Of a stretch of DNA of 64,000 nucleotides, positions 6,880-28,937 are shown piece after piece. Numbering within the stretch: the stretch's first letter is position 1; every line of letters begins with the position of its first letter. The notes beneath the pieces were generated by a model, which was not told the origin of the DNA, ran no database searches, and was given only the letters and a program-made list of their open reading frames with translations. The position numbers were made by a program, and so were the translations under genes. The stretch is from Anaerococcus murdochii (GTDB taxonomy: Bacteria; Bacillota; Clostridia; Tissierellales; Peptoniphilaceae). The stretch covers positions 2,079,001-2,143,000 of the forward strand of contig NZ_JAIPME010000002.1 of NCBI RefSeq assembly GCF_019957155.1. The letters are read 5' to 3'.

Positions 6880-7210
6880 CTATTCAATCATTTTGAAGTG
6901 TCTCAAGGCATCCATAATGGCTTCTTCTTTTTCAGGTGTACACTGTGGAATAATTTGTTTCTCCTTTTTAGACTTGTTGTAATGTTCTCGTAATTCTATT
7001 CCACATTTCCTTTTTATCTGTGCAATATATAATGTTGGAACTTTTAATTGAAATTTATTCCAAACATATTCTTTGATTTGAGCATATGTTGCCTTACTTT
7101 CAGCACTTGTCAAATCAAGCTCATCCAGCTCAATTTCAATATTTATATGCTTATCGACATCAAGTTTGGACAAAAGTGCTACCGTCTCGACATGCGTTGT
7201 CTTTTGCTTG
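6880..7210 (-). pseudogene. Displaced 3' end of an rlmD/rumA-type methyltransferase gene
   Basis: From about 7210 the frame reads TTHVETVALLSKLDV, which matches the end of RlmD (the chromosomal copy has TMHVETIALIQKM). About 95 residues follow of an extension (ELDLTSAESKATYAQIKEYV, then LYIAQIKRKCGIE and EKEEAIMDALRHFKMI) that I recall as a frequent tail of such methyltransferases in Clostridia. The N-terminal nine-tenths of the enzyme are missing. A weak ATG frame extends upstream to 7278, but those codons belong to the recombinase frame. I read this as the piece of the target gene pushed aside when the island integrated. Confidence 0.6.
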
Positions 7211-8926
7211 GGAACATAATTTTTTATCCTCGTCATTCTTGTAGGAGCACAATTTATTAATGTCATTGTCTTTGGCATTTTTTCTTTTATCTTTAAAGTT
7301 ATTAGAATCTTGACTATCTTTAACTCCTGTTTTGAAATAGAATGTTAAGTCATATGGATGAACTGTTCCGTCTTTGTCAATTCTACCCACCACGACTTTA
7401 TCAACTATGCTTTCAAATACTGTTCTATTAAATCCCTCTATAATTTCTTTGTTTTCTAAGACCTTTTTAAATTGCTTTAGTCTTTCTTTAATAGAATTTT
7501 CATCTTTTATTGTTAGCTCTAGGGTTTTCTTTTCATCAAGTAATTCTTCTTTTTGTTTTGTAAGTTTTTTATACTTTTTAGTATAAACTTCTTCATCTAT
7601 ACTGTCTTCCAGATGAAGGTCAAATAACTTTCTTTCTTGACTAATGATTCTGTTTAATTGGTTTTCTATCTTCTTCAAATCTTTGACTAAAGTATTATCA
7701 TTTATTTCTTCTTCTACAATTTTTAAAAAATCATCTATTACTGTTGAATCTGCATGGCATAATTGCCTATAGCTTTCAACAAATGCTTTTTCTATTGCTG
7801 CTTCTTGTATTCCTTTTGAATGAGGGCAATATTTTTTACCTTTTTTTGTTGACTTTACACATTGCCAGTTAATTTTTTTATAAATTGAACTAGTGTGCCA
7901 TGTTCTTCTTGAAAGTATTTCACCACAAAATCCACATTCCAGCATACTTGAAAAAGCGTATTGTCTTGATAGTTTTTCTCTCTTCCTATCCTTGTTAGCA
8001 ATGGTGTTTCTATTCTGTGCTCTCCTGAGTCTAATCTCCTGTGCCTTTTCAAAGTCTTCTCTTGATATAATTGGCTCGTGATGATTTTCAATATGATATT
8101 TATCAGATTCACCAAAGTTTGCTAGTCTTCTTTTTGTTATGGGATCAACTGTGAAGGTCTTTCCCATTAGTATATCTCCAATATACTTTTCATTTTTAAT
8201 TATTCCTAACACTGTAGTATCAGACCATTTTGTTTTACCTCTCGGGGTGAGATATCCTTGCTCTTCTAGTTCCCTGCCAATGACCGAGCCACCATTGCCC
8301 TCTAAATATCTTTTAAAGATGTATCTGACAATTTTGGCTTCTTCTTCATTTATAGAGATACTTTTTGTTGTAGGGTCATAGTCGTATCCAAGACAACCTT
8401 GAAAACCAATAAGTTCCCCTTTTTCCATTTTCATTTTCAGTCCTTTTTTCACATGGGCTGAGGTATTTTCTACTTCTTGTTGAGCTACTGAACTTAATAT
8501 TGTTAATAATAGCTCTCCATCCATTGTCAAAGTATCTATATTTTCTTCTTCAAATACTACACCAACATTGTTTTCCTTTAGCAGTCTTACATATTTCGAA
8601 GTATCTAATGTATTTCTTGCAAATCTTGATATAGATTTAGTAATTATCATGTCTATATCTCCATTTTGGCAATCACTTATTAGCCTCATGAAATCTGCTC
8701 TTTTAGTAGCAGTTGTTCCTGTGGTTGCTTCATCTGCATATATACCAGCCAGAGTCCAGTTCTTATTATTTTTTATTAGATTTGTATAATAATCAACTTG
8801 CGATTTATATGATTCAAGTTGGTCTTTACTATCAGTGCTAACTCGACAATATGCTGCAACTCGTTTTAAATCTAAATGTAGTGCATTTCTATTCTTGCTC
8901 CTGTATTTGAAGCTTTTATTACTTAT
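7160..8926 (-). CDS. Large serine recombinase of the island, probably frameshifted at its start
   Basis: The resolvase domain includes AAYCRVSTD with the catalytic serine, IITKSISRFARNTLD and a recombinase domain (GFQGCLGYDYDP, then WSDTTVLGIIKNEKYIGD). A zinc ribbon (CGFCGE and later Cys) and a long coiled coil follow. The first ATG in frame (8689) misses the catalytic serine, yet the frame is open to ATA at 8924-8926. A well-placed GGGAAGGATG site instead serves ATG at 8938-8940, whose frame stops after five codons; restoring one A (GTAATAAGT) would join them. The C-terminus runs into the rlmD fragment, as expected at an attachment site. Confidence 0.8.
   Translation of the reverse strand: MSNKSFKYRSKNRNALHLDLKRVAAYCRVSTDSKDQLESYKSQVDYYTNLIKNNKNWTLAGIYADEATTGTTATKRADFMRLISDCQNGDIDMIITKSISRFARNTLDTSKYVRLLKENNVGVVFEEENIDTLTMDGELLLTILSSVAQQEVENTSAHVKKGLKMKMEKGELIGFQGCLGYDYDPTTKSISINEEEAKIVRYIFKRYLEGNGGSVIGRELEEQGYLTPRGKTKWSDTTVLGIIKNEKYIGDILMGKTFTVDPITKRRLANFGESDKYHIENHHEPIISREDFEKAQEIRLRRAQNRNTIANKDRKREKLSRQYAFSSMLECGFCGEILSRRTWHTSSIYKKINWQCVKSTKKGKKYCPHSKGIQEAAIEKAFVESYRQLCHADSTVIDDFLKIVEEEINDNTLVKDLKKIENQLNRIISQERKLFDLHLEDSIDEEVYTKKYKKLTKQKEELLDEKKTLELTIKDENSIKERLKQFKKVLENKEIIEGFNRTVFESIVDKVVVGRIDKDGTVHPYDLTFYFKTGVKDSQDSNNFKDKRKNAKDNDINKLCSYKNDEDKKLCSQAKDNACRDGSTFVQT
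7190..7202. repeat. Left attachment-site candidate of the 20.5-kb island
   Basis: The 13-mer ACATGCGTTGTCT agrees at 12 of 13 positions with 27721-27733, in the same orientation. Both copies lie in the HVET codons of rlmD-type sequence. It marks the recombinase end of the island. Confidence 0.55.
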
Positions 8927-8995
8927 ACTTTAGTATTCATCTTACATCCTTCCCATTTTGTGTCTTTCTACAGTATTATTTTATCACAAGCTTAA

Positions 8996-9133
8996 TTACT
9001 TTCTATTCATCTTCTTATAATCATTTTCTAACCTGTTCTTAATTTTTGTATATTCCTTATCATTAATTAATTTAAGATCATAAAGTCTACATAACATAGC
9101 AACTCTCATACTATAAATCTTTATTGCTTGCAT
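8996..9133 (-). CDS. SHOCT-like 45-residue protein
   Basis: This small protein (MQAIKIYSMRVAMLCRLYDL, then INDKEYTKIKNRL) has the L-x3-G/K-LI-x-EEY-x3-K pattern of SHOCT-type short helical domains. A strong AGGAGG precedes ATG at 9131. It ends about 55 bases before the recombinase start, and I recall similar small ORFs directly upstream of serine recombinases in Clostridial integrative elements. The function is unknown; a role as recombination directionality or regulatory factor is only a guess. Confidence 0.6.
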   Translation of the reverse strand: MQAIKIYSMRVAMLCRLYDLKLINDKEYTKIKNRLENDYKKMNRK

Positions 9134-9433: not shown

Positions 9434-10786
9434 TTAGTTTTTCAAACCAATTTTATCCATCCTATTTAATTCCCCAAACATCATTACTACACCAGCTATT
9501 ATCATAATTAAATCTACAAAGGGTTCTGCAAACCATACTGCTTTAACTCCAAATATCATTGGTAAAATAATCATGGCAGGTACGAATAAAAATAACTGTC
9601 TTAGCATTACTATTATGCCGGCTTTTTTAGCGTTTCCTATTGATTGGAAGAATGTTATAGTCATTACCATTACTCCATATAGGATAAAGATAGAATAAAA
9701 TAGTCTAAAGTTTCCTATTCCCTGAGTTATAATACTTTCTTCTACTCCAAATAAAGACAGAATATTCTTTGAAAATGCTAATGCTGGTATCCAAAATATT
9801 GATGCAAGAACTAATCCTCCGATAGAAAATACTTTCATAGCTTCTTTTACTCTGTCGTATTTTTTCGCTCCAAAATTTGTACCAACTACAGGTTGTAAAC
9901 CTTGACTCATTCCCCAAAGTGGAATGAATGAAAAGGCATATATTCTAAGTGTTGCTGCCATCAAGATAGCATTTGTATCTCCGCCATATTTAAATGACAT
10001 TTTATATAGCATTGTTTGTTGAATCATAAATAAAATTTGCATCATCATAGCAGATGACCCTACGCCAAACATTTCTTTTTTTATTTCCTGATCAGGTTTG
10101 ATTTTATTTATTTTTACTGCTTTACTTTTATATTTGAAGTAATGGAGTGTTATTATCGCTTGAACAAATTGTGCTGTAATAGTTGCAAGTGCAGCCCCTT
10201 CTATTGCGTATTTTCCCATTAATTTCATTAGAATTGGATCAAGAATTATGTTTAAAAAAGCTCCTAGCCCCATAATGAGCATTGCTTTTTTCATTAATCC
10301 TTCTCCACGCATAACCATGTTTGCTGATTGAGTAAAGTTTACAAATAAAGAACCAATAAAAATTACTCGTAAATATCTGATACCATATTCTTTAATTTCT
10401 CCACTTGCTCCAACCATATCTAAAAAATGTGGTGCAAGTAAAATTCCGCCTATTGTAATAATTGATGAGAATAGAATAACCCAAAAGATTAAATTCCCCA
10501 TAATTTTATCAACTGTTTTTTTGTCGCCCTTTCCTATAGCTCTTGATAAAACCGATGCTGAACCTACACCAATAAGTGTAGATACACCACTATTGAAAAA
10601 TGTAAGTGGCATAGCTACACCACAAGCTGTCATTGCTGTTTGTCCTATAATATTTCCTGCAAAAATTCCATCCATTAGTGGATAAAGACCTATTACTATC
10701 ATTCCTATTACAGCAGGGACAGATAATTGAAAAAGTAAATCTATGGGTCTTTTTGTTAATAATTGTTCTTTCATATCTTGTTTCAT
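9434..10786 (-). CDS. MATE-family multidrug efflux pump
   Basis: This 450-residue protein has about 12 membrane segments in two halves of six, with the MATE hallmarks VPAVIGMIVIGLYPLMDGIF near the start and the internal repeat beginning VGSSAMMMQ. Such pumps use Na+ or H+ gradients to export cationic drugs or metabolites. The start at 10786 follows GGAGGATG. It is the last gene of the TetR/ECF/ABC cluster and probably exports a product handled by that cluster, though separate drug export is possible. Confidence 0.85.
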   Translation of the reverse strand: MKQDMKEQLLTKRPIDLLFQLSVPAVIGMIVIGLYPLMDGIFAGNIIGQTAMTACGVAMPLTFFNSGVSTLIGVGSASVLSRAIGKGDKKTVDKIMGNLIFWVILFSSIITIGGILLAPHFLDMVGASGEIKEYGIRYLRVIFIGSLFVNFTQSANMVMRGEGLMKKAMLIMGLGAFLNIILDPILMKLMGKYAIEGAALATITAQFVQAIITLHYFKYKSKAVKINKIKPDQEIKKEMFGVGSSAMMMQILFMIQQTMLYKMSFKYGGDTNAILMAATLRIYAFSFIPLWGMSQGLQPVVGTNFGAKKYDRVKEAMKVFSIGGLVLASIFWIPALAFSKNILSLFGVEESIITQGIGNFRLFYSIFILYGVMVMTITFFQSIGNAKKAGIIVMLRQLFLFVPAMIILPMIFGVKAVWFAEPFVDLIMIIAGVVMMFGELNRMDKIGLKN

Positions 10787-10790
10787 AAAA

Positions 10791-10877
10791 TCATCCTCCT
10801 TTTTTCATATTCTTAAAATCCAAACCACTTGTAGGTTCGTCAAAAATTAAGATTGATCTATTACTCAAATTTAAATC
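10791..10877 (-). pseudogene. Remnant of an ABC ATPase (Walker B and D-loop)
   Basis: On the minus strand about 28 codons read as SNRSILIFDEPTSGLDFKNMKK before TGA. This is the Walker B and D-loop of an ABC ATPase and is close to the second half of the ECF ATPase in this cluster (IIILDEPTSGLDYTNM). There is no start and the rest of the gene is absent. It sits between the ABC half-transporter and the MATE gene, so a further ATPase gene has been deleted here, or a partial duplication occurred. Confidence 0.6.
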
Positions 10878-12613
10878 TTCCACTTTTCAGATTGTTTTCT
10901 GATTTCAATAAAATCCTTATATATTCCATGTTTAGATGCAAGTTCACTATGTGTTCCTACTTGTTTTATAACACCATCTTTTAAAACAACTATCTGATCT
11001 GCATTTTTTACAGTAGAAAGCTTGTGTGCAATTACAATAACAGTTTTGCCTTTTAATAAGTTTTTCAAAGCAATCAATAATTCTTTTTCATTTTCTGGAT
11101 CTACGCTTGAAGTTGCCTCATCAAGAACTACAAACCTACTCGGTTTTAACATGGCTCTTGCAATAGAAATTCGTTGACGCTCACCACCCGATAGATTTGA
11201 ACCCCCTTCTTGCAAAACAGTATCATAAGCTTGTGGCAATTTCATAATAAAATCATGGCACTGAGCTTTTTTGGCAATATCTATCATTTCTTCATCTGTT
11301 GCATTTGGATTACCAAACTTAATATTGTTTTTTATGGTATCATCAAAAAGATACACGTCTTGAAAAACAAAGCTAAAATTTGAAAGCAATTCATCATACT
11401 TGTACTGTTTAATATTTAGATTTCCAACTTTTACTTCGCCAGAATTTACATCCCAAAACCTCGCCATTAAATTGCAAAGTGTTGTTTTACCACTTCCTGA
11501 AAATCCAACAAGAGCAGTAGTTTTCCCATCTGGAACAAGCATACTTAGATTATTGAAAAGATTTTCTTTTCCATAAGAAAATGAAATATTGTTCATTGAT
11601 ATTTCTGCTTTATCTACTTCTGTCATTTCACCTTCTTCAATTACAGGCAAATTTCTTAAATTTATAACAGTATTAAGATTTCGTACAGCAACACCCTTAA
11701 TACTCTGCATACTTCCTGCCAATTCAAATCCTGAAAAAACAACAAAACTCATAACAATTAATATAATAGCTTTAGTAACTTCAATATCCCCTGATAAATA
11801 TCTTATGATAGAACTAAAAATTATTACACAAATACCAAGTTTAAATACTAACAAGAATAAAAACTGTGTTGGAACTAAAATTTTTTCTACAGCAAGGAAG
11901 CCTTTGCGACTTTTTGTAATACTTTCGTTTAGTTCCTTGACTGTATTTTGATCTTTTCCAAATGCTTTAGTTATTCCTATCCCATTTACATACTCAAGCA
12001 TTTTTTCACTTAAATCCAATTTAAGTCCTAACAATCTCTCTGTTAGTTGATCTGTGCTTTTTTGTGTGAATAAGTTTACTAAGGTTCCAACAATCAAAGT
12101 CAACAATATAATTATAGCTGTTGCAAAATCATAAGGTAGTATGAAAATAACCATAATTAGTGTCTGTATTGTACCTACAAGCATTTGCTCAATAATAAAA
12201 ACTCCTATTGTTTCAAGTTCACCTATAACAGTTGACAATGCTCCTGCTATATTCCCTAAAGAATTTGTGCTGAAATATCCCATGTTTACATTTTTTAAAC
12301 GATCACCAATATATAATCTATTTTCTGCTCCTAAATTGTACGAAGCAATATATTTGTTTTTATCAGCCAGATATCCAAATATAATTTTTCCCACCACACT
12401 TATAGCTGCAATAATAAAAACAATATACACATCTTTCATTAAAATGCTTTGGTTCGTGAATATATTTTCACAAATTTTGGTCAAACATAATAGAATTGCA
12501 CCTAAAGAAACTCCTTCAAATACTCCCTTAAATACATCAAAAATAAGCATTTTTGTTATTTTATTTGAATATGACCCTGACACCTCATATAAAGTTTTTA
12601 TCAATTCTCTCAC
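10871..12613 (-). CDS. ABC half-transporter (type I exporter fold), second subunit
   Basis: This 580-residue protein has six membrane segments (residues 1-310), then an ATPase domain with Walker A GFSGSGKTT, signature LSGGERQRISIA, Walker B FVVLDEATSSVDPENE and the switch His in IAHKLS. The GTG start at 12613 has GAGGTG upstream and lies two bases after the first subunit gene, so they should form a heterodimer. The pairing with ECF-type import subunits and the DP-ENE extension recall YbtPQ/IrtAB, exporters by fold that import siderophores. Import versus export cannot be decided from the sequence. Confidence 0.85.
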   Translation of the reverse strand: MRELIKTLYEVSGSYSNKITKMLIFDVFKGVFEGVSLGAILLCLTKICENIFTNQSILMKDVYIVFIIAAISVVGKIIFGYLADKNKYIASYNLGAENRLYIGDRLKNVNMGYFSTNSLGNIAGALSTVIGELETIGVFIIEQMLVGTIQTLIMVIFILPYDFATAIIILLTLIVGTLVNLFTQKSTDQLTERLLGLKLDLSEKMLEYVNGIGITKAFGKDQNTVKELNESITKSRKGFLAVEKILVPTQFLFLLVFKLGICVIIFSSIIRYLSGDIEVTKAIILIVMSFVVFSGFELAGSMQSIKGVAVRNLNTVINLRNLPVIEEGEMTEVDKAEISMNNISFSYGKENLFNNLSMLVPDGKTTALVGFSGSGKTTLCNLMARFWDVNSGEVKVGNLNIKQYKYDELLSNFSFVFQDVYLFDDTIKNNIKFGNPNATDEEMIDIAKKAQCHDFIMKLPQAYDTVLQEGGSNLSGGERQRISIARAMLKPSRFVVLDEATSSVDPENEKELLIALKNLLKGKTVIVIAHKLSTVKNADQIVVLKDGVIKQVGTHSELASKHGIYKDFIEIRKQSEKWKI

Positions 12614-12614
12614 T

Positions 12615-14327
12615 TTATATCACCTCGATTTCTTTAGATTCTGTATATACATCCCACATTTTTTTGTATCTCCCATTCAACTCTAGTAATTGTTTATGAG
12701 TGCCTTCTTCAATTACTTCTCCATTATCCACCACAATTATTTTATTTGCATTTACAATTGTAGATAACCTGTGAGCTACCATAATCACTGTTTTATCTTT
12801 AATTAACTTATCAATAGACTGTTGAATAACTGATTCATTGTCAGGATCAGAATATGCTGTTGCTTCATCAAGTAGTACAATAGGACTATTCTTTAAAAAA
12901 CACCTAGCTATTGCAATTCTTTGCTTTTCTCCTCCAGAAAGATTTGCTCCTCCCTTTCCTACAATAGTTTCATATCCATTTGGTAGGCTCTTTATAAAAT
13001 TATAGCAACTCGCTTTTTCACAAGCCTCTTTAATTTCATCCATACTCGCATCTTCCTTCGCCATCTTTAAATTTTCTAATATTGTTTTATTAAAAAGAAA
13101 GTTTTCTTGCGACACATAGCTAACAAGCTCCATATTCTGTTTTAAAGGTAATTCGTTCAAATTTGTTTTTCCAATTAAAATTTCTCCATTAGAAACATTC
13201 CAAAATCCTGCGATTAGTTTTGTAATAGTAGACTTTCCACTACCTGAATTTCCAACGATTGCAGTTAACTCATTTTCATTTGCTTTAAACGAAATATTAT
13301 TTAATACATTCTTTGACTCTTCATATGCAAATGTAACATCTTTAAACTCTACATCATAAGATTTTATATCTCTTACTTCTTCTCCTCTTTTTAAGTTAGG
13401 AATTTCCATTATTTTTTTTATTTCTTCAAATACAACTTTTATATTTGCTATTGTTTCCATATGACTCATAGCTTTTATTAATGGTTTATATGAAGCATAT
13501 GATAGCAATATACACGTGATAAGAGTCCCTACTTCAACACTACCCTTCATAAAGAAATACAAGGAAGCTGGTAAAACGAATACCATAGTTGACGGGATAG
13601 TTTCCATAGTTGCTGTCATTGAAAAACAAACACTCAAATACCAATCAAGCATTGCGTTCTTATTCTCTTCAACAGTCTTTCTAAATTTCCCAAATGATGA
13701 TGCTGATTTATTAAATGCTTTTATAACTTTAATACCATTTACATATTCAACCATTGTCGTATTCATAGCTTTAGCTGCTTCTTGGTATCTTTTAGATTTT
13801 TCTTCATAACCTCGCATCATTAACATTGAGAACAATAATCCCAATGGAATTGTAAGTAAATTTGCAATTCCTATTCTCCAGTCCATTATAAAAATTGTTA
13901 TGATCAATACTATAGGAATGAATATATTAGCAATAACTTCTGGAATCACATGAGCAATCGGTTTTTCCATTTTATCAAGTGTTTCCACCATAAATTGAGA
14001 CCACTGTCCGCTGCTTTTTCTTTCAACTTCTCCCATAGAAATTTTACTTAATTTGTCAGCTAATAACTTTCTTTTATCTTCAATAATCCTGTAGGCAAGA
14101 TTATGAGAAATAATAGTAGATATTTCATGAAATAATATACTTGCCAAAAATCCCAAAAATACAGCAAAAATATATGGATAATAATTATTTAAATTTGTAT
14201 TTTTTGCAACCAAGTTATTAATAATGGCTGCTACAGAAAAATAAGGTATTACACCAAATCCTACTCCTATTATCGCAATGAATACAGCTGCGAAAATCTT
14301 GCTTTTATGTCCCTTTAAGATATCCAT
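12615..14327 (-). CDS. ABC half-transporter (type I exporter fold), first subunit
   Basis: At 570 residues it has six membrane helices followed by an ATPase domain with Walker A GNSGSGKST, signature LSGGEKQRIAIA and Walker B IVLLDEATAYSDPDNE. The DEATA-x-x-DP-(E/D)NE form is the one I associate with the IrtA/YbtP/YbtQ siderophore-importer branch rather than drug exporters (DEATSALD). It starts at 14327, three bases after the ECF ATPase stop, and partners the next gene. The likely substrate is an iron chelate or other small metabolite; this is an inference from motif and context. Confidence 0.85.
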   Translation of the reverse strand: MDILKGHKSKIFAAVFIAIIGVGFGVIPYFSVAAIINNLVAKNTNLNNYYPYIFAVFLGFLASILFHEISTIISHNLAYRIIEDKRKLLADKLSKISMGEVERKSSGQWSQFMVETLDKMEKPIAHVIPEVIANIFIPIVLIITIFIMDWRIGIANLLTIPLGLLFSMLMMRGYEEKSKRYQEAAKAMNTTMVEYVNGIKVIKAFNKSASSFGKFRKTVEENKNAMLDWYLSVCFSMTATMETIPSTMVFVLPASLYFFMKGSVEVGTLITCILLSYASYKPLIKAMSHMETIANIKVVFEEIKKIMEIPNLKRGEEVRDIKSYDVEFKDVTFAYEESKNVLNNISFKANENELTAIVGNSGSGKSTITKLIAGFWNVSNGEILIGKTNLNELPLKQNMELVSYVSQENFLFNKTILENLKMAKEDASMDEIKEACEKASCYNFIKSLPNGYETIVGKGGANLSGGEKQRIAIARCFLKNSPIVLLDEATAYSDPDNESVIQQSIDKLIKDKTVIMVAHRLSTIVNANKIIVVDNGEVIEEGTHKQLLELNGRYKKMWDVYTESKEIEVI

Positions 14328-14330
14328 CTT

Positions 14331-15746
14331 TTACCTTCTTTCATAAAATCTTTTTATTCTGCCATCGCAAATCTCCAATAATTTATTACATGTACTATCA
14401 ATCAATTCATTATCATGCGTAACAATAAATATAATTTTATTATTTGAAAATTCTTTAATGACTTTGCTTATTTCGAGCATATTTGTATAATCAAGTCCAC
14501 TCGTTGGTTCGTCCAAAATAATAATTTCTCTATCCATTAACATCCCCAATGCTACAGAAAGTCTCTGCATTTGACCTCCTGATAAGCACATAGGATGACG
14601 ATTATCTAATTTTTTAAGATCTAATTTTTCTAGAATATTATCTATTTGCTTTTCATCTATTTTAGAATCAAATAAACTAAATTCATCTCTTACAGATTCC
14701 GAAAAAAACTGATGAATTACATCTTGCATAACCATATAACAAAGTTTTCTTCGTTTTTTATATTTTATGGGACTTCCTTTATAGCTTATTTTTCCTTCGT
14801 TTTCTTTCAACAGTCCACACAAAATTCTCATTAATGTTGTTTTTCCTTGACCATTTTTACCTGTTATTGCAATAATATCTCCCTTGTTTCCGGAAATATT
14901 TATCTTATCTAAAATTTTTTGTTTCTTATTTTCATATTCTAAATTTGAAACTACAAAGTCATCAGATTCACAAAATGTGACAGGATTTGCAAAATCATCA
15001 TTTTTCTTTCTTACAAAAGTTCTAAGTCCCAGTTTCTTTCGTGATTCGTCAGTAATTGAAGAAAATTCCACATTTGAAAAAACATATTTTATTTTTCCGT
15101 CTTGTAAATAAATAGCTCTATCAATTAAATCCATTAAATAATAGAGTCTATGTTCAGAAATAATAATTGTCTTGCCCTGAGCTTTAAGATTTATAAGCAT
15201 CTCTCTTATTCTTTCAATACCATACTCATCAATATTTGCAGAAGGTTCATCAAACACATATACATCTGGATTGGTAGCATAAATAGATGCAATAGCAAGT
15301 AATTGCTTTTCTCCACCTGACATCATAAAAACATTTCTGTTTTTTAATCTTTCAATTTCCAAATCACGTACCACTTTAAAAACTTGTCTTTTTATTTTAT
15401 CAGGGTTTTCACCTAAATTTTCTAATCCAAATGTTAGTTCACTATCTGAATCTAAATTAAAAAACTGTGTTTTGGGGTTTTGAAAAATTGTTCCCACTTT
15501 TTCAGAAATTTCATATATCTTCATTTGTTTTGTGTTTATCCCATTTATAAAAATATTTCCTAATAAATTTCCCTCTAAAAAATGAGGAATCAATCCATTG
15601 ATTAATTTTGTTATAGTTGTTTTCCCAGAACCAGATTTTCCGCATAATAAGATAACTTCTCCTTGATTAATCTTTATTGAAATTTTCTTTAACTGTTCTT
15701 CTAAGCTTCTCTTATAGGAATATGAAGCTTCATTTATATTAATCAT
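14331..15746 (-). CDS. ECF-type double ATPase (EcfA1-EcfA2 fusion, CbiO-like)
   Basis: This 471-residue protein carries two ATPase domains in one chain. The first has Walker A GKSGSGKTT, signature MMSGGEKQLLAIA and Walker B VYVFDEPSANID; the second has GKNGQGKTT, CLSGGQMQRLSVA and IIILDEPTSGLD. Both also have the switch His (SEHR and THDN). Fused energizing ATPases of this size pair with an EcfT and a TIGR02185-type S-component in many Firmicutes. The T and S genes are directly upstream, so all three should form one energy-coupling-factor importer in the membrane. Confidence 0.85.
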   Translation of the reverse strand: MININEASYSYKRSLEEQLKKISIKINQGEVILLCGKSGSGKTTITKLINGLIPHFLEGNLLGNIFINGINTKQMKIYEISEKVGTIFQNPKTQFFNLDSDSELTFGLENLGENPDKIKRQVFKVVRDLEIERLKNRNVFMMSGGEKQLLAIASIYATNPDVYVFDEPSANIDEYGIERIREMLINLKAQGKTIIISEHRLYYLMDLIDRAIYLQDGKIKYVFSNVEFSSITDESRKKLGLRTFVRKKNDDFANPVTFCESDDFVVSNLEYENKKQKILDKINISGNKGDIIAITGKNGQGKTTLMRILCGLLKENEGKISYKGSPIKYKKRRKLCYMVMQDVIHQFFSESVRDEFSLFDSKIDEKQIDNILEKLDLKKLDNRHPMCLSGGQMQRLSVALGMLMDREIIILDEPTSGLDYTNMLEISKVIKEFSNNKIIFIVTHDNELIDSTCNKLLEICDGRIKRFYERR

Positions 15747-15758
15747 GTTTCGTACCTC

Positions 15759-17039: not shown

Positions 17040-17070
17040 TTGAATACCTCCTTTTAAATTTTTATATTTA

Positions 17071-19994: not shown

Positions 19995-20026
19995 GACCCC
20001 AATAATTTATGATAAGGAGATATACT

Positions 20027-20383: not shown

Positions 20384-20384
20384 T

Positions 20385-21716
20385 ATGGCAATTACAAAAA
20401 TACATCCTATAAAATCAACTTTAAATTTGGCAATAGATTATATAACTAAGAGTGAAAAAACTGATGAAAAAATCTTGGTATCTTCCTTCAAATGCCATCC
20501 ATCTACTGCTCATATTCAATTTATGAAAACACGAGAAGACAATGATACTAAGGGTACAGTTTTGGCTAGACATTTGATTCAATCTTTTCTACCAGGCGAG
20601 GTTGATCCTATAAAAGCTCACGAAATAGGAATGGAATTATGTAAGAAAATTTTAAAAGAAGATTATGAATTTGTTCTTGCAACTCATATAGATAGAGGGC
20701 ATATCCACAACCATGTTATTTTTAATAACGTTAATTACAAGACTGGTAAATGCTACCAATCTAATAAAAAATCTTACCATAAAATCAGGTATCAAAGTGA
20801 CGAATTATGTAAAGAAAATAAGCTTTCAGTCATTGATGAATATTATGAAGCTTACAAAAGAAAATATAAAACTGCTGGTAAATCTTGGTATGAATTTGAC
20901 CAAAGTAAGAAAGGAAGTTCCTGGAAATCTAAACTGCAATTTGATATAGATAGAATGATTAATAAGTCTAAATCGTGGGAAGAGTTTTTAGAAAATATGA
21001 AATCTCTTGATTATGAAATTAAATTTGGTAAACACATTGCTTTTCGTCATAAAGATAAGCAAAGATTTACAAGAGCAAAGACTATCGGAGAAGATTATAC
21101 TGAGGAAAAAATCAAAGAAAGAATAGATTTAGCTATCAAAAACAAAGCTAATCCTACTAAAAAGCGTGTAGGAAATGTTATTGATATATCTACTAATAAA
21201 AAAGCTCAATCCTCAAAAGGTTATGAAGTTTGGGCAAGAAAACATAATATCAAAACAATGGCTGATTCAATAATTAAATTAAGAGAACAAGGAATTAATT
21301 CAATTACTCAACTCGATGATCTAATCAAAAAATCTGCAGATGATAGACAAGATTTGTTAGATAAAATAAAGAAAATTGAAACTGAAATGAAGTGTTTGTC
21401 TCAAGATATGGAAAATATAAATACTATAAATAAGCATCGTGAAATCTATAAATACCACAAGAAAAATCCTGATGATAAACAATTTGCAGAAGAATATTAT
21501 AGTGAGCTTTCCATCTACAAAATAGCTGCTAAAGAAATCTTAGAAAACTATAAAAAACTACCAAACACAAAAGAAATACTATCAAACCTCGATAAATTGC
21601 AAGAAAAAAAGAACACCCTTATGCAAGAGTATTCTTTGAATAAAGAACAATTTTCTGACCTTGTTCTGTATAGAAAAAACTATGAAAATTATTATGGGAA
21701 AGAGGTGGAGAGGTAA
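20385..21716 (+). CDS. mobA: MOBP-type relaxase
   Basis: The 443-residue protein starts MAITKIHPIKSTLNLAIDYI, has a tyrosine-bearing N-terminus and shows the metal-binding histidine triad HIDRGHIHNHVIFNNV of PF03432 relaxases. A long coiled coil makes up the last 150 residues. It nicks oriT and leads single-stranded DNA transfer. There is no coupling protein or type IV secretion gene in the window, so the unit is mobilizable and needs a helper element. The start at 20385 was preferred over GTG at 20376. Confidence 0.9.
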   Translation: MAITKIHPIKSTLNLAIDYITKSEKTDEKILVSSFKCHPSTAHIQFMKTREDNDTKGTVLARHLIQSFLPGEVDPIKAHEIGMELCKKILKEDYEFVLATHIDRGHIHNHVIFNNVNYKTGKCYQSNKKSYHKIRYQSDELCKENKLSVIDEYYEAYKRKYKTAGKSWYEFDQSKKGSSWKSKLQFDIDRMINKSKSWEEFLENMKSLDYEIKFGKHIAFRHKDKQRFTRAKTIGEDYTEEKIKERIDLAIKNKANPTKKRVGNVIDISTNKKAQSSKGYEVWARKHNIKTMADSIIKLREQGINSITQLDDLIKKSADDRQDLLDKIKKIETEMKCLSQDMENINTINKHREIYKYHKKNPDDKQFAEEYYSELSIYKIAAKEILENYKKLPNTKEILSNLDKLQEKKNTLMQEYSLNKEQFSDLVLYRKNYENYYGKEVER

Positions 21717-21737: not shown

Positions 21738-24311
21738 TCATTCCCATTCAAATAGAGTGTTAAGTTCCTTATATTCTTCTTCGTATTTATCTTGATTTAT
21801 AGAGGCTCTTAATTTTTCATCATCAATTCCTATAATTTCACCTATTTCACTTTTAATAAATAGATCAGGATATTTATCTAATAAAAATATTGCCATGGTT
21901 CTTGAAAATCCTAAATTTTGTATATCGATTATTTTTGGATTAGTAGTTCCATAATCAATATACTCTTCCCAATCACACTCAAGATCTAAATCGCATGAAC
22001 GTAATATTGATTGATAATTACCTACATAGGTTTTAATCTTATATTTAATATTATTCTCTAAATTTTTAATCAAGTTATTAATAAGCGTATTAATATGAAG
22101 AGAGTTATTTTTATCAAACTTTACGTTATACATATTTCCATCTTTACGTAAACTTATATATTTATTTTCTCCAGAATTGTAATAATAGCTAATCGTTTTT
22201 TGAATTAAATATTTTAAAGGTTTAGAATTTATCCAACCTTCCATTAATGTAGCATAATAAGTTAGTTGTTCTTTGCTTCTTATCAGTGGATTATTTCCCT
22301 TGTTTTCAGTTCTTAGCCAATCGTATTCTTTACATAATATTTTTAATACTTCATAGCAACCTTCATAAGTAGTTTCTATAGGTAATAATTCTTTATTTCC
22401 ATTAAAAACCTTATTTTGAATCTCAATATTTATATCTATACCTTCTGCTAAAATATTTCCAGGTATAGAGTTTTCATTCCTAATTTTTTTCAAAATATCT
22501 AACGAGTTATTTCCTGAATCTATAAATCTATCTTTTAAAATAGAATCGCTATTAACTGTATCATGATATAATAAAATATTACCATACATTTCTATGATTT
22601 TTTTGTCATCTTCAGATAAACTTTTGTTAGTGTACTCATTCTTTGTATAGTAGTTGGCTATATTCTTATATAAATTCTTGTTATTTTTCATTAATATAAT
22701 TGGCTCAACTTCTTTAATATTTTTATTCCTAAGAATTTGAACTTTTTTTTCATCTTTCCAATAACCTTCTTGATTATAAAGATTAACACAAAATATATTA
22801 CCCGATAAATCTTTACTTAGTCTCCCTGCCCTACCCGCTAAATTCCAAAAATCAACATTGGTCATATTTGATAATCCAATTTTTTCACTTAAAATAAAGA
22901 TATTTTTTGCGGGTAGATTTACTCCTTCTAAGAGTGTTGAAGTACAAAAAATAATTTTTATAAATCCTAATTTATATAGCTCTTCAACTTTTATTTTTAT
23001 TTCTTCAGGAATTCCACCAAAATGATATGCAATGCCTTTTTTCAAGCAATATTTAAGATAATACTGCTCATGAACTTTTTCGTTTATTATATCAACTAGT
23101 TTATCTATATAATCATTTTTTACTTCTTCTAAAGTTTTTGCATATTCGAATGCTGTTGATATTGTCTTTTCTATAGTATTACAATAAACTATACTTTGTC
23201 TACCACTAGAAAAAGTCTTTAATATAGTGCCCAAATCTGTAATAACATTACCAGAAAAATTTAATTTAGGAAATAATATATTATCTCCATAATCACTAAT
23301 TAAATAACTAGAGTCTGTATGACAATTAATAAAAAATCTATTTTGTGATACTGATTCAACTTTAACTGCATAACTTTCGTCGGGAGTATTATTTACCAAT
23401 TCTAAAAATACTGATGGATTAGGAATATTTGGAGATGCAAAAAATATGTTTATACTTTTTCTTTTTGCCATAACTAATGCGTGGTACATTAATGGTGTTC
23501 TAGTATCTTTTATACTCAATAACTTGTGAGCTTCATCTACAAATAAATAATCTATTTTAGGATTAGTCCCATCTAAAAAGTAAGAAATTAACCTTTCTGG
23601 TGTAAAAACAAAAATATATTTTCCATCTTTTTTCTTTAAAATTTTAGGTATTTCTGGAGAATTGATGACCTTATAACTGTATGATTTAACTAGATTTCTA
23701 ATCTTATAAGAAACTTGGTTTATGAGTGCTTTAGTCGGAACAATAAAAGCTATATTATCTGACTGATTATGTTCTTCTATTAAGTATTTAGTAAAAGCTT
23801 CAAAAATAAATGATTTTCCAAATGACGTACTTCCAGAAAAACTAAAGTGATTATTATCTTTTAATTCATTAAATATTTTAAGTTGCTCATCTGTAAAAAT
23901 TTCTTGAATTGGTGATTTGTTATATAATCTTTTAATTATTAAATCCAAATCAATTTCATCAATTCCAGTATTCTCAAATTTATTCCAAATTAGATTAATA
24001 GAAGGAAAATTTCCTAATTTGGTTAGCACATTCATAATGCTTAATTTTATAAACTGATTTTGTAAAAGTTCTTTAAACTCATATACAAGGCTTACTATTT
24101 TTAATGATAAATTTTTATGTTCAGCTTCAGACGATCTACATAGTATATCGGCAAATCTCATTAAATCAAACAATTCTTTGTCTGATAACTTAATTATAAA
24201 CTCTTCATCTAATAATTTATTACAATAATTTTTTTCTAAATTGTATATTAAATTGATCAAATATTCGTCTTTAAATGCTTTTTCTGAAAGTTCAGCAATA
24301 AGATTATTCAT
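21738..24311 (-). CDS. hamB: Hachiman defence helicase HamB
   Basis: This 857-residue superfamily 2 helicase carries motif I SGSTSFGKSFIFEAF (about residue 157), motif Ia IVPTKALINQV, DEAH box FVDEAHKLL, motif V STLLEGVNLPAKNIFI and motif VI NLAGRAGRLS. A long C-terminal region follows. It overlaps the DUF1837 gene by four bases, the HamA-HamB order of Hachiman, in which the helicase senses phage-altered DNA and controls the HamA nuclease. The gene faces the relaxase gene tail to tail with 20 bases between. All motifs appear intact. Confidence 0.88.
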   Translation of the reverse strand: MNNLIAELSEKAFKDEYLINLIYNLEKNYCNKLLDEEFIIKLSDKELFDLMRFADILCRSSEAEHKNLSLKIVSLVYEFKELLQNQFIKLSIMNVLTKLGNFPSINLIWNKFENTGIDEIDLDLIIKRLYNKSPIQEIFTDEQLKIFNELKDNNHFSFSGSTSFGKSFIFEAFTKYLIEEHNQSDNIAFIVPTKALINQVSYKIRNLVKSYSYKVINSPEIPKILKKKDGKYIFVFTPERLISYFLDGTNPKIDYLFVDEAHKLLSIKDTRTPLMYHALVMAKRKSINIFFASPNIPNPSVFLELVNNTPDESYAVKVESVSQNRFFINCHTDSSYLISDYGDNILFPKLNFSGNVITDLGTILKTFSSGRQSIVYCNTIEKTISTAFEYAKTLEEVKNDYIDKLVDIINEKVHEQYYLKYCLKKGIAYHFGGIPEEIKIKVEELYKLGFIKIIFCTSTLLEGVNLPAKNIFILSEKIGLSNMTNVDFWNLAGRAGRLSKDLSGNIFCVNLYNQEGYWKDEKKVQILRNKNIKEVEPIILMKNNKNLYKNIANYYTKNEYTNKSLSEDDKKIIEMYGNILLYHDTVNSDSILKDRFIDSGNNSLDILKKIRNENSIPGNILAEGIDINIEIQNKVFNGNKELLPIETTYEGCYEVLKILCKEYDWLRTENKGNNPLIRSKEQLTYYATLMEGWINSKPLKYLIQKTISYYYNSGENKYISLRKDGNMYNVKFDKNNSLHINTLINNLIKNLENNIKYKIKTYVGNYQSILRSCDLDLECDWEEYIDYGTTNPKIIDIQNLGFSRTMAIFLLDKYPDLFIKSEIGEIIGIDDEKLRASINQDKYEEEYKELNTLFEWE

Positions 24312-25222
24312 GTTAAAATATCCTCTAAAATTTTTCTTCTTGTATTATCTATATCAGTGAATGGAACAATGTAGACAAAAAAAGTATGCCCTAATAAATT
24401 GTTGTCATTAATTTTTTTATATACCTTATTTTCAAAAGAATCTAATTCCAAGAGAATTTTTTTCTTAACTTCATCAATAAAATCACTGCTAGTACATTTC
24501 TTCGTCTCTTCTGATATATCTATTTCATAACCAATAAAAATAGAAAAAGCATCGTCTATGTGCAATTTTTTCTCATTTTTAGATGGATATATTATAAATT
24601 CTAATATAGCCTTATCCTCATCACTCAACTCAAAATTATCAATATTTGATGATATTAAATCTTTTTCATAATTTATACCACTTTTATTTTCTCCACTAGT
24701 ATTTATCTCATTAATAAAATCATTTATAGATTTAAATGCTTCATATAAAGCATCTGATATATTTTTATATAACTTAGATTCCCCAAATATAAGTTTATAT
24801 GTTCCGTCACAATTACTCAAAAGATGCACTCCATCTGATCCATTGACATACATTTTGTTAGATGTTTTCATCTCCATTTTTGTTAAAATTTTAGGGGCAT
24901 TTAAATGACCCTCTAAAAAACAATATAAAAGCAATTCACCTAATTCACCTGTATTATTCAAGTATTCTTTAAACTTTTTACGTGCAATTTGTGATAATCT
25001 TCCAGGCTTATTTTGATATTTTGTTATATTTTTCTTGGATATAGCATAATCAATTACAGAATCTACTAATACTAAGGAAATTTGATTATAATCAAATTTC
25101 CTAGCATTTATTGGACACATAAAAATATTTAAATTCCCGTCATCTAAATTTGTACTTATAGGTATATCTTTTATATTTTGAAATATCTTAATTACATCTT
25201 TTGAATTTTGACTTACTATCAA
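24308..25222 (-). CDS. hamA: Hachiman defence protein HamA (DUF1837 nuclease)
   Basis: This 304-residue DUF1837 protein has the order expected for the HamA PD-(D/E)xK-like nuclease core: GELGELLLYCFLEG with the first acidic residues, VNGSDGVHLL and LIFGESKLYKNI with E-x-K, all near residues 92-160. HamA degrades DNA when HamB is activated. The stop overlaps the hamB start, so the two subunits are translationally coupled. The start at 25222 is the first in frame. Its placement beside a relaxase shows a defence system travelling on a mobilizable island. Confidence 0.85.
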   Translation of the reverse strand: MIVSQNSKDVIKIFQNIKDIPISTNLDDGNLNIFMCPINARKFDYNQISLVLVDSVIDYAISKKNITKYQNKPGRLSQIARKKFKEYLNNTGELGELLLYCFLEGHLNAPKILTKMEMKTSNKMYVNGSDGVHLLSNCDGTYKLIFGESKLYKNISDALYEAFKSINDFINEINTSGENKSGINYEKDLISSNIDNFELSDEDKAILEFIIYPSKNEKKLHIDDAFSIFIGYEIDISEETKKCTSSDFIDEVKKKILLELDSFENKVYKKINDNNLLGHTFFVYIVPFTDIDNTRRKILEDILT

Positions 25223-26350: not shown

Positions 26351-26599
26351 TTATTTTTTAACTTTTAACTTCTTAATAACCAATAATCCAATTACAACCG
26401 TTAACCAATAACAAACCTCACATAGAAATAATATTAATAATATTTCTTTTGTATGAGTCTTATTTATATCATATTTCAAAAAATAAGAAACACCAAAAAT
26501 AAAAAGCCCAAATATGTTATACAGAAAGGCTTTTAAGAACGTATTTTTCTTCTCTGCCAGACTTCTTATCTTGCCCTTTATACTCTCGATATTAATCAC
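26351..26599 (-). CDS. Chimeric ORF: AbiEii N-terminus joined to a membrane segment
   Basis: The first 18 or so residues (MINIESIKGKIRSLAEKKN) match the conserved N-terminus of AbiEii toxins, and the GTG start overlaps the abiEi stop as in intact operons. After that the protein changes to two strong membrane helices (FLYNIFGLFIFGVSYFL and VCYWLTVVIGLLVI) and ends with KKLKVKK. No nucleotidyltransferase motif remains. It looks like a deletion or insertion joined the toxin start to the end of a membrane-protein gene. The 82-residue product may be expressed but should not be an AbiE toxin. Confidence 0.55.
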   Translation of the reverse strand: MINIESIKGKIRSLAEKKNTFLKAFLYNIFGLFIFGVSYFLKYDINKTHTKEILLILFLCEVCYWLTVVIGLLVIKKLKVKK

Positions 26600-27183
26600 G
26601 ATAATACCTCCATGTATTTTCTAATTTCATTTTCTATTTTAAATAATTTACTGTATTTTATGAGTCGTCTTAGATTTTTATTTTCTGATTTAAAGTATCT
26701 TTTTATGGCTTCTGTAAAAATTTGCTTATCTATTTTTTCTCTGTCGATTATGATATCGCAAATTGTTCGATCTATATCGTAAACTGGAATAAGGTTGCCT
26801 TGCGGTGATTTTATTTCTGTCTTTCCTAGTTCGTATAAGTCTTTTTTTACATAGTGAACTTGTAGATCCTCATATCTTTTTTTGATATGGCTTGCATTAT
26901 AGCCTTGGGGCACAGATATATGAAATACATTTGGAGTTCTATCTGATAGGTCGTGGAGATAGAGGGCTGTTTGATGTGAAAATATAATTCGATTACTATT
27001 TGATGATATTAAAACAAAATCGTCTATTACTTTTCCTTTTAATTGATATAGACCTGGTCTTAATCTTTCTAATTGTCCGATTTTTGTTAATTCTGATAGA
27101 TTATGCCTAGTATATCCAAGTTCTTCTGCTTCTTTGTTGGTGATTACTAAATTTTCTTGGATATATTCTTTAAGTGTATTCAT
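26596..27183 (-). CDS. abiEi: AbiEi-family antitoxin / transcriptional repressor
   Basis: This 195-residue protein has an N-terminal winged-helix domain (LVITNKEAEELGYTRHNLSE, then RLRPGLYQLKG) and an AbiEi C-terminal domain with HQTALYLHDLSDRTP and PVYDIDRTICDII. AbiEi represses its own operon and counters the AbiEii nucleotidyltransferase (type IV toxin-antitoxin, phage abortive infection). It starts at 27183 behind GAGGAGG. The matching toxin is broken, so the antitoxin is an orphan that may still act as a repressor. Confidence 0.85.
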   Translation of the reverse strand: MNTLKEYIQENLVITNKEAEELGYTRHNLSELTKIGQLERLRPGLYQLKGKVIDDFVLISSNSNRIIFSHQTALYLHDLSDRTPNVFHISVPQGYNASHIKKRYEDLQVHYVKKDLYELGKTEIKSPQGNLIPVYDIDRTICDIIIDREKIDKQIFTEAIKRYFKSENKNLRRLIKYSKLFKIENEIRKYMEVLS

Positions 27184-27483: not shown

Positions 27484-27512
27484 AAAAAAAGAGCAGCCTT
27501 TTAAGCTACTCT
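27484..27512 (-). terminator. Rho-independent terminator downstream of rlmD
   Basis: Minus-strand AGAGTAGC and GCTGCTCT form a stem with one G-U pair, followed by seven T residues. It would stop transcripts from the dnaE-pfkA-pyk-rlmD operon that run past the rlmD stop. Confidence 0.75.
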
Positions 27513-27564
27513 TGTAGAAAGTATAAAATGGGTTTTATCTTATTATATTTTTCTTTGTGTCTCC

Positions 27565-27693
27565 TCATACCAGTTGCAAAACTACTCTTACGTCCATGTA
27601 GTTTTTTTGGGTCTTTTTGACGTATCCTTCTTCATCTTTATCGAAGACAAAATGCTTATAAAACTGCTTAAAATGCAGGATTTCTAAGTTTAC
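27565..27693 (-). pseudogene. C-terminal coding remnant at the right edge of the island
   Basis: An open frame with no start, running out of the rlmD 3' end, encodes a polar tail (FKQFYKHFVFDKDEEGYV, then KKTQKNYMDVRVVLQLV) and stops with TGA at 27565. The composition is protein-like. I do not recognise the family. It may be the end of an element gene or of a displaced host gene. Confidence 0.35.
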
Positions 27694-28937
27694 ATCTTTT
27701 GTATCAACGCTATAGTTTCCACATGCATTGTCTGTGGGAACATATCCACACCCTTGATTTTTTCTAGTTTATAACCTAATTTTTCAAACCTATTTATATC
27801 TCGTGCTAGGGTTTGTGGGTTGCAGGAGATGTAGATTATTTCTTTTAGGCCACTCTTGCCTATAGATTTTATTAGGTCTTTGTCTAGTCCTGCCCTTGGT
27901 GGGTCTACTATTAGGCTATCGATTTTTTCTTTTTTTATAAATTTTTCGTCAATATATTTGGCGTTTTTCGCTATGAATTTAAAGTCTTTTAGGTCGTTTA
28001 TTTCTGCGTTTATTTTGGCGTCTTGGATGGCGTTTCTGTTTATTTCTACACCTACAAGCCTATCGCCGTTGATGGCAATAGATGAGGTGGCAGATCCGCA
28101 GTAGAGGTCTAGGACTTTTTTGCCTGATCCTAAAAGTTTTTTTGCTTCCCCGTAAAGATTTTCTATTTGAAAGTCATTAACTTGATAAAAATCATTGGCA
28201 CTTATCCTGAAGGTTTTGTCAAAAATCCTATATTCCAAATGGTCCTTGCCTGAAATGTTTATATTTTCCTTACCTACAATATTTATGAAAAATTTACTGT
28301 TTTTGTATTTTTCTCTGATATAGGATATTAGCTCTTCACTATTTTCCAGATCAAGGTTTATCATCACATTTTCGCCATTGGTTCTTATGGTGATTTCCTT
28401 AATTGTACCTGGGAATTTTTCTGAAATATCCTTTGTGATTTCTTCTATTTTGTCTAAATTTTGGCTAATTTCTTCCCTGACTAAGAGGCAATCTTTTATG
28501 TAGACTAGATCATTTGAGTAAGACTTGTTATAGGCAAGACGTCCGTCTTTTTCTACTTGAAGTCTGATTTTATTCCTATATCTTAATTCTTTTGATGGGA
28601 TTATTTCAATATCTTCCAGTTTATAGGAAGTGGATTTGGCTATGGCTTGTAAAATGAGATTCTTTTTTATTTTTAGTTGTGTTTGATATTCTATATCCAT
28701 AATAGTACAAGCTCCACATTCATAAAAATATGGACATGGAGCTTGTGTTTTAACTGGGCTTTCTTTAATTGTTTTTATCTTTTTTGCATTGTAGAAATTT
28801 TTCTTTTCTTCTATGACTTCAATGTCGCAGACTTCGCCGTAGACTGCGTCTTCGATAAAAGCAACCTTATCAGGAGTTTCTCCGACTCCCCTCCCATCTA
28901 TTAGGATATCTCTTATATAGATATCTTGGTATTTCAT
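27690..28937 (-). CDS. rlmD: 23S rRNA (uracil-C5)-methyltransferase, RlmD/RumA family
   Basis: This 415-residue enzyme has an N-terminal TRAM-like domain (residues 1-60), an iron-sulfur cluster motif CPYFYECGAC with a later Cys in IKDCLL, SAM-binding LDLYCGSATSSIAI, catalytic VDPPRAGLDK and nucleophile loop ISCNPQTLARD. It methylates U1939-type uracils of 23S rRNA. The protein ends shortly after MHVETIALIQKM with no extension, unlike the displaced rlmD tail at 6880-7210. That suggests the island replaced the original 3' end. It is the last gene of the dnaE-pfkA-pyk operon. Confidence 0.88.
   Translation of the reverse strand: MKYQDIYIRDILIDGRGVGETPDKVAFIEDAVYGEVCDIEVIEEKKNFYNAKKIKTIKESPVKTQAPCPYFYECGACTIMDIEYQTQLKIKKNLILQAIAKSTSYKLEDIEIIPSKELRYRNKIRLQVEKDGRLAYNKSYSNDLVYIKDCLLVREEISQNLDKIEEITKDISEKFPGTIKEITIRTNGENVMINLDLENSEELISYIREKYKNSKFFINIVGKENINISGKDHLEYRIFDKTFRISANDFYQVNDFQIENLYGEAKKLLGSGKKVLDLYCGSATSSIAINGDRLVGVEINRNAIQDAKINAEINDLKDFKFIAKNAKYIDEKFIKKEKIDSLIVDPPRAGLDKDLIKSIGKSGLKEIIYISCNPQTLARDINRFEKLGYKLEKIKGVDMFPQTMHVETIALIQKM
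27721..27733. repeat. Right attachment-site candidate of the 20.5-kb island
   Basis: ACATGCATTGTCT, inside the last codons of rlmD, matches 12 of 13 bases of 7190-7202 in direct orientation. Both lie in the same HVET codons. It marks the presumed chromosome-island junction. Confidence 0.55.

What the first reader, a model, noticed from the sequence alone, without database searches (positions are those of the whole stretch)
7190..27733. A 20.5-kb island bounded by two copies of the rlmD/rumA 3' end
At the left, the large serine recombinase runs into a fragment encoding THVETVALLSKLDV plus a 95-residue tail. At the right lies the chromosomal rlmD gene ending MHVETIALIQKM. The 13-mer ACATGC(G/A)TTGTCT occurs directly repeated in the same codons at 7190-7202 and 27721-27733. 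The simplest reading is integration into the 3' end of rlmD, replacing the last codons and pushing the old tail 20 kb away. I recall rum/rumA as a known target of streptococcal and clostridial integrative elements.
Basis: partly seen in the sequence, partly recalled or inferred. Interest (0 to 1): 0.75.

Follow-up and report, generated by a model that had tools for sequence, protein, structure and literature searches.

The report
rlmD-end integration array with integrase-tail swap
The 20.5-kb island is a mobile element inserted at the end of a ribosomal-RNA methylase gene, and its supposed "old gene tail" is most likely the detachable end domain of another element's integrase, which such elements hand over to the host gene when they insert, so that arrays of them can stack up at this one site.

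Summary
In detail: a 20,531-bp serine-recombinase element (E1: relaxase, Hachiman and AbiEi-like genes, ABC/ECF/MATE transporters) lies between two att-like repeats in the 3' end of rlmD of an Anaerococcus near A. lactolyticus. Neither end is rlmD's own. IALIQK(M/I) is E1's left end; it ends 11 of 30 rlmD genes of the genus. The 95-residue tail is the left end of the next element, E2. It is 92-100% identical on methylases whose bodies share 27-69% (Streptococcus, Enterococcus, Finegoldia, Anaerococcus). At five loci it is the in-frame C-terminal domain of E2's type of serine integrase. So integration swaps 3' ends: RlmD receives the integrase tail, the integrase receives RlmD's last codons; two database proteins look like the matching products of such a swap in glycerol kinase. 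E1 and E2 head a ~158-kb array of eight same-strand junctions; 13 of 24 relatives have junctions beyond rlmD. Exchange of rumA/integrase 3' ends and tandem accretion are already described in streptococci. New: identity of the exchanged domain, its in-frame swap, dual coding of E1's end, array scale. Against: 5 of 15 RlmD-tail genomes checked lack that integrase. A switch role is untested.

The parts
27690..28937 (-). rlmD (23S rRNA uracil-5-methyltransferase), last codons supplied by element E1
   Evidence: Pfam PF05958; 3' end compared in 30 rlmD loci
27721..27733 (-). att-like core at the rlmD/E1 junction (attL of E1)
27565..27726 (-). E1 left end: codes IALIQKM* in the rlmD frame and, in the LSR frame, an open stretch of about 54 codons, the inferred C-terminus of the LSR1 integrase in the circular form
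   Evidence: open and conserved in the LSR frame in 11 of 13 copies; dN/dS 0.14 in that frame against 1.2 and 1.05 in the others, one pair of copies, dS near saturation
26596..27183 (-). AbiEi-type antitoxin/regulator gene
   Evidence: PF13338, PADLOC AbiEi 2.4e-69
24308..25222 (-). hamA (Hachiman defence)
   Evidence: PF08878, PADLOC HamA 1.6e-113
21738..24311 (-). hamB helicase (Hachiman defence)
   Evidence: PADLOC HamB 3e-294
20376..21716 (+). MobA/VirD2-type relaxase
   Evidence: PF03432 2e-37
20009..20383 (+). MobC/NikA-like mobilisation protein
   Evidence: PF21983 2.9e-13
18336..19613 (-). IS110 transposase
   Evidence: NF033542 4.4e-68
9434..17084 (-). transport cargo: ECF S component, ECF-type ATPase, two ABC exporters, MATE pump; the ORF 15759-16445 is taken as the ECF T component by position only
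7160..8689 (-). LSR1, large serine recombinase of E1; the open frame continues upstream of this ORF
   Evidence: PF00239, PF07508, PF13408; frame read; copies in relatives compared
7190..7202 (-). att-like core at the E1/E2 junction
6880..7200 (-). E2 left end: 95-residue tail, C-terminal domain of the E2-type integrase (LSR563), now orphaned and out of frame behind LSR1
   Evidence: in frame behind LSR563-type integrases in L135, L152, L165, L183, L189; fused to RlmD in many genera; dN/dS 0.17-0.22
1..7194 (.). left-end part of E2; E2 goes on outside the window to about G000:C2:2064177, where its LSR563 gene ends VECVALLSRKKDKKL*

Best explanation
The island is an integrative and mobilizable element (E1) inserted by its own serine recombinase (LSR1) at the VE codons near the 3' end of rlmD. 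It sits in front of a second element (E2) that had used the same site, at the head of a tandem array of about 158 kb. Elements of this group place attP inside, or just after, the integrase gene, so one crossover swaps 3' ends: the host gene receives the element's left end, which encodes a new C-terminus, and the integrase receives the host gene's last codons. For E2's integrase type (LSR563) the two genes are joined in the same frame, and the swapped piece is the integrase's own 95-residue C-terminal domain. For E1 the frames differ, and one stretch of DNA codes both IALIQKM* and a longer integrase C-terminus. Every insertion leaves a usable rlmD 3' end and a new junction, so elements accumulate. 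Shown by sequence: ends, junctions, fusions, purifying selection, a pair of proteins that fit the two products of one insertion in glpK. Inferred: timing, order of insertions, which integrase made each junction. Not shown: excision, and any effect of the tail on recombination direction.
For: Core repeats. In 30 rlmD loci (own + 29 of 30 same-genus genomes; G014 gave no locus) the end after HVE falls into classes: 12 IALIQ(K/R), 7 VVLMSRK, 2 MTRVAPTK, 2 tail, 7 single. Eleven IQK(M/I) copies have mean nt identity 0.76-0.79 at -300 to -12, 0.86-0.87 at -12 to +9 and 0.95 at +9 to +40. The same IQK end follows other sequences at G000 44123 and G030 3240, an LSR563 in G028, and a second methylase gene in G007, G008, G009, G027 and G029. 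Tail: methylase body 27-69% against tail 92-100% aa in 21 pairs of 7 proteins; in frame with LSR563-type integrases at 5 loci; 13 of the 120 listed hits are recombinases. Among the 120 best LSR563-body relatives, after DN..VE: 75 end within 45 residues (69 of them RlmD-like by pattern), 15 run on into other sequence (8 with a foreign Pfam domain), 8 carry the tail, 20 are under 545 aa (18 end VECVSLLEKRS), 2 are artefacts of my alignment. GlpK: P0072 = GlpK up to E277 + tail, P0247 = LSR + GlpK from E277. Array: 8 junctions in the own genome; 33 same-strand to 0 opposite-strand ends; none on either strand in window 28938-64000. Flank genes lie 10-15 kb from rlmD in A. jeddahensis, 86-95 kb in G028, 163-169 kb here.
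Against: No reads, so no excised circle or empty site was seen; no Anaerococcus genome was proved to have the unoccupied site. Of 15 genomes with a methylase-tail fusion that I searched, 10 have an LSR563 relative (one partial) and 5 have none (S. mitis, Streptococcus sp. HF-1907, Gemella haemolysans, G. sanguinis, Veillonella atypica); in 4 of those 5 no PF07508 recombinase at all was found, so the fusion outlives its integrase, or the assemblies miss it. In S. halichoeri the integrase ends VE* and has an internal stop. A GmrSD gene lies straight after the last junction, so HVESVVRLEKE* may be one more element end rather than native. Ungapped identity of IQK copies falls beyond +40 (0.86, minimum 0.37), partly from small indels. 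The junction pattern was written after seeing junctions, so only its strand bias and the upstream control are independent. Two of 13 IQK copies do not keep the LSR-frame extension (G011, G015). P0072 has no named organism, so the GlpK halves are not shown to be one event. LSR1 copies of this genome differ in N-terminal frame from relatives, so E1 may no longer move by itself.
Confidence: 0.87

Rival explanations
1. One reading: one element inserted in an rlmD that natively carried the long tail; IALIQKM is the element's replacement end.
For: Removing E1 restores an open RlmD-tail gene; A. senegalensis has exactly RlmD-tail.
Against: The tail is 92-100% identical between methylases of different orders whose bodies share 27-69%, is joined to GlpK, a phage capsid protein and integrases, and further junctions go on for 158 kb.
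Confidence: 0.04
2. The tail is an old RlmD domain that elements captured and now spread, rather than an integrase domain.
For: Most listed proteins with the tail are methylases: 107 of the 120 listed and 118 of 120 carry PF05958. Four of 15 methylase-tail genomes show no PF07508 recombinase.
Against: RlmD ends without the tail mostly stop about 10 residues after HVE; the LSR563-type body runs in frame into the tail at five loci; a methylase excess is expected because elements are mostly found integrated.
Confidence: 0.1
3. E1 and the array are static remnants assembled by homologous recombination between repeats, not by repeated site-specific integration.
For: E1 has a partly near-identical second copy in the array (99.5% over 2218 bp at the LSR end); LSR1 frame differs from relatives.
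Against: Junctions fall at the same codon in many species with different partners on each side, as a site-specific recombinase gives.
Confidence: 0.08

Closest known systems
Streptococcal ICEs/IMEs with a single serine integrase in rumA (Ambroset et al. 2016, PMC4701971, passages read; PMC5357655, passages read)
   Same: Same target gene, single serine integrase at the element end, short direct repeats in rumA and in the integrase gene, reciprocal exchange of 3' parts that alters both C-termini.
   Different: There the exchange is said to change the frame of both proteins; here LSR563/RlmD is swapped in frame and the exchanged piece is a conserved domain. Host is Anaerococcus; E1 carries Hachiman.
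Tandem accretion of ICE/IME/prophages at rumA and other sites (PMC7168690, passages read; PMC5704250, passages read)
   Same: Stacking of unlike elements at one att site; ICEs and prophages at rumA in S. suis.
   Different: Eight junctions over ~158 kb in one genome, read codon by codon.
Tn1806 / ICE10750-RD.2 family (PMC3055811, passages read)
   Same: An erm gene and a recombinase triplet occur there and in this array; that paper reports shared parts with F. magna and A. prevotii pAPRE01.
   Different: Tn1806 inserts in hsdM with three recombinases at its end; the rlmD junctions here use single integrases. No Tn1806 sequence was compared.
PDB 3guv, resolvase-family recombinase (title only)
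   Same: P0247 residues 5-161 match it at 5.2e-95, so the catalytic domain of LSR563-type integrases has a solved relative.
   Different: That chain has 167 residues and does not reach the tail.
Integrase-RDF fusions (PMC5737554, start of abstract in a listing only)
   Same: A second protein joined to a serine integrase controls direction.
   Different: Made in the laboratory; the tail here is natural and its effect unknown.

Membership tests
rumA/rlmD-targeting serine-integrase element | large serine recombinase with Resolvase and Recombinase domains at the element end | tested here: met
   LSR1: PF00239, PF07508, PF13408
rumA/rlmD-targeting serine-integrase element | short direct repeats in rumA and in the integrase gene | tested here: met
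   13-mer at 7190-7202 (inside the LSR1 ORF) and 27721-27733 (inside rlmD)
rumA/rlmD-targeting serine-integrase element | reciprocal exchange of rumA and integrase 3' ends | tested here: met
   for the E2 type; for E1 by its two junctions and the LSR-frame extension
rumA/rlmD-targeting serine-integrase element | excision and circular form | not testable with these tools
   no reads or strains; no circle-type LSR1/IQK junction in 31 genus genomes
integrative and mobilizable element (E1) | own relaxase and integrase, no conjugation channel | tested here: met
   PF03432 relaxase, MobC-like protein, LSR; none of the 14 E1 proteins scanned matched a channel ATPase or coupling protein; short ORFs of E1 were mostly not scanned
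Hachiman defence | HamA nuclease and HamB helicase side by side | tested here: met
LacI-type headpiece (tail domain) | three-helix DNA-binding headpiece | tested here: inconclusive
tandem accretion | chain of same-orientation att junctions with different elements between them | tested here: met
   8 junctions, 33 to 0 by strand

The most novel reading that the evidence does not exclude
The integrase is a state-dependent, split enzyme: only the circular element encodes the integrase with its (perhaps DNA-binding) tail, so integration itself removes the tail from the integrase and parks it on a host methylase. The insertion event would then be its own directionality switch, without a separate directionality factor or with RlmD-tail acting in trans.
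Probability: 0.3. Interest if true: 0.8.

Novelty: new variant of a known kind. Interest (0 to 1): 0.6.

Why it matters
Thousands of database proteins carry this unmodelled domain (2374 hits; 7979 scored, a capped number); by the listed samples most are RlmD-type methylases. On this evidence it belongs to mobile-element integrases, which explains an annotation puzzle and gives a one-protein marker for past occupation of the rlmD site. Host genes with the tail and integrases with host ends record past insertions letter by letter, including secondary sites such as glpK. [quoted passage not shown]

Tried and rejected
Rejected: chance repeat; tRNA-type attachment; tail as old rlmD end; tail as piece of another methylase (only HVET is shared; the window's tail had no Pfam or NCBIfam match; best Pfam E-value among 37 tail members 0.0099; best PDB sequence match E 0.32). 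PHROGs gave one family of unknown function (6.9e-07) over the tail's C-terminal part in L183 and none for the window's tail.

Led nowhere: no LSR1/IQK (circle-type) junction was found in 31 genus genomes (the 15 matches are all at rlmD or its paralogue) nor in the one IMG/VR stretch found. The full-length integrase model (A2) was never accepted; the plain Foldseek search was never accepted, so only VIA-align's second look is reported. My script classes put L132 (RlmD-fused) and L183, L135 (in-frame LSR) under 'other'; its printed tally is 44 RlmD-fused, 8 LSR-adjacent, 3 FIHTDH-like, 2 contig end, 23 other, of the best 80 of 185 loci. In one search two of the 17 'long-other' rows (P0243, P0264) are artefacts of where the alignment stopped.

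Full report
1. Observation. The window is G000:C2:2079001-2143000. The genus is Anaerococcus: relatives G002, G003, G009, G001 and G024 hold contigs of the same lengths as records titled A. lactolyticus, A. vaginalis, A. senegalensis, A. jeddahensis and Anaerococcus sp. 9403502, and rlmD is 90% identical to that of G002 and 91% to that of G019.

2. Neither 3' end is native. In 30 rlmD loci of the genus (29 of 30 relatives plus own) the codons after HVE fall into unlike classes: 12 end IALIQ(K/R).., 7 VVLMSRK, 2 MTRVAPTK, 2 with a long tail, 7 are single. In the 11 IQK(M/I) copies mean nucleotide identity is 0.76-0.79 from -300 to -12, 0.86-0.87 around the core and 0.95 at +9 to +40; it falls again further on, partly from indels. 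The IQK end also follows other sequences and a second methylase gene in five genomes. The IQRVKS variant of G002 also ends RlmD of Streptococcus pseudoporcinus.

3. The tail. It was found in 21 of 61 genomes, own included, and at 185 loci of the species collection, of which the best 80 were kept, among them Streptococcus, Gemella, Veillonella, Finegoldia and Peptoniphilus. It is fused to RlmD-type methylases in 44 of these 80 by my script, one more (L132) by eye. On seven proteins, methylase bodies share 27-69% and tails 92-100%. It also ends a truncated glycerol kinase and a capsid-family protein.

4. Whose domain it is. At five loci the tail is the in-frame C-terminus of a serine integrase related to LSR563 of this genome: L135 (partly masked, A. 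vaginalis), L152, L165, L183 and L189. LSR563 itself, at G000:C2:2064127-2065818, instead ends VECVALLSRKKDKKL*, an RlmD-like end. Among the 120 best relatives of its body, after DN..VE 75 end within 45 residues (69 RlmD-like by pattern), 15 run into other sequence (8 with a foreign Pfam domain such as MsrA/B, FGGY kinase, ABC transporter or ParA), 8 carry the tail, 20 are under 545 residues (18 end VECVSLLEKRS) and 2 are alignment artefacts. This is what a crossover at the VE codons inside the integrase gene must leave.

5. A fitting pair. P0072 is glycerol kinase up to E277 (1r59 numbering), then the tail. P0247, named by its source as a FGGY-family kinase of S. agalactiae, is the integrase followed by glycerol kinase from E277. 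These are the two products expected of one insertion in glpK, though not shown to be from one strain.

6. Results that do not fit simply. Of 15 genomes with a methylase-tail fusion, LSR563 relatives were found in 10 (one partial) and not in 5; four of those five showed no PF07508 recombinase at all. I read these as decayed elements or assembly gaps, but they are also what a captured methylase domain would give.

7. E1's end codes twice. Read in the LSR1 frame, the IQK left end is an open, conserved stretch in 11 of 13 copies. Between the copies of G002 and the window dN/dS is 0.14 in that frame and 1.2 and 1.05 in the others (46 codons, dS near saturation), so it is probably the integrase's C-terminus in the circle. 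The tail is under purifying selection too (0.17-0.22).

8. The array. Same-strand junctions lie at C2 2106725 (rlmD/IQKM), 2086194 (LSR1/tail A), 2064177 (LSR563/VECVALLSRKKDKKL), 2062777, 2042845, 2040790, 1956277 (second LSR1 copy/tail B) and 1948572 (HVESVVRLEKE*). The first two are 27725 and 7194 of the window. E1 is 20,531 bp and E2 about 22.0 kb. Between the outer junctions lie a TrbL-like and a VirB4/TraG-like gene and a MobA/MobL relaxase, eight PF07508 recombinases and an Erm(A)-type methylase. In 25 genomes (own + 24; 964 kb) a pattern for RlmD-type ends occurs 33 times on rlmD's strand and never on the other; 13 of 24 relatives have at least one beyond rlmD, 9 have two or more, and 11 have none in the 3.6 to 40 kb read. 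One more G006 junction seen is not counted.

9. Outer limit. Three genes 10-15 kb downstream of rlmD in A. jeddahensis recur at 163-169 kb here, and two of them at 86-95 kb in G028. A GmrSD gene just after the last junction leaves open whether one more element remnant is there.

10. What E1 is. Relaxase, MobC-like protein and LSR without a channel gene among the 14 proteins scanned: an IME, carrying Hachiman, an AbiEi-like gene and transporters. Both LSR1 copies of this genome differ in frame at their N-terminal end from copies in relatives, where open copies exist.

11. Mechanism and function. A serine integrase crossing over within the shared VE codons explains the junctions. The tail model (mean pLDDT 67) has three helices with weak likeness to LacI-type headpieces, so DNA binding is a guess. 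Whether its removal on integration sets recombination direction is the open, testable point.

12. Known and new. Ambroset et al. (PMC4701971, passages) already state that rumA insertions exchange the 3' parts of rumA and integrase and alter both proteins, in another frame. Tandem accretion, and rumA as a site for ICEs and prophages, are in PMC7168690 (passages), IMEs in rumA in PMC5704250 (passages). Ten searches listed no paper that by title or abstract start describes the tail as an integrase domain or such an array in Anaerococcus; most of the listed texts were not opened, and most subscription journals are missing from the library.

Noticed in passing
L068:2655-3386 (G000:C2:2041655-2042386): Erm(A)-type 23S rRNA methylase gene in a 2-kb segment between two junctions of the array (NF012222 510.5 bits, cut-off 475).
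   Followed up: partly
G000:C2:1977438-1982267: Three serine recombinases in a row beside split methylase-like genes, recalling triplet-type ICEs in hsdM; perhaps an ICE nested in the array (methylase reading by eye).
   Followed up: no
L192:4001-4312: A hypothetical ORF between spw and lsa(E) in an Enterococcus multiresistance plasmid is a 37% relative of the tail; 94 of 95 matching plasmid records are under 60% identity.
   Followed up: no
L097, L103, L107 (G024, G029, G021): The VVLMSRK end is followed by what looks by eye like one prophage family (polymerase, helicase and head-gene-like ORFs), so phages may use the same site.
   Followed up: partly
L190: S. suis phage YS162 record starts with a rum methylase gene that carries a relative of the tail (54%), so host DNA seems included in the phage record.
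   Followed up: no
window 18336-19613; G000:C2:1970284-1971561 and 1992344-1993621: Three closely similar IS110 genes in the array, each near MobC-like genes.
   Followed up: no
G000:C2:1946545-1948365: GmrSD-type restriction gene right after the last array junction.
   Followed up: no
L119/L213-L214 genome (Gemella haemolysans): Two RlmD-type genes side by side, one ending normally and one partial one carrying the tail.
   Followed up: no
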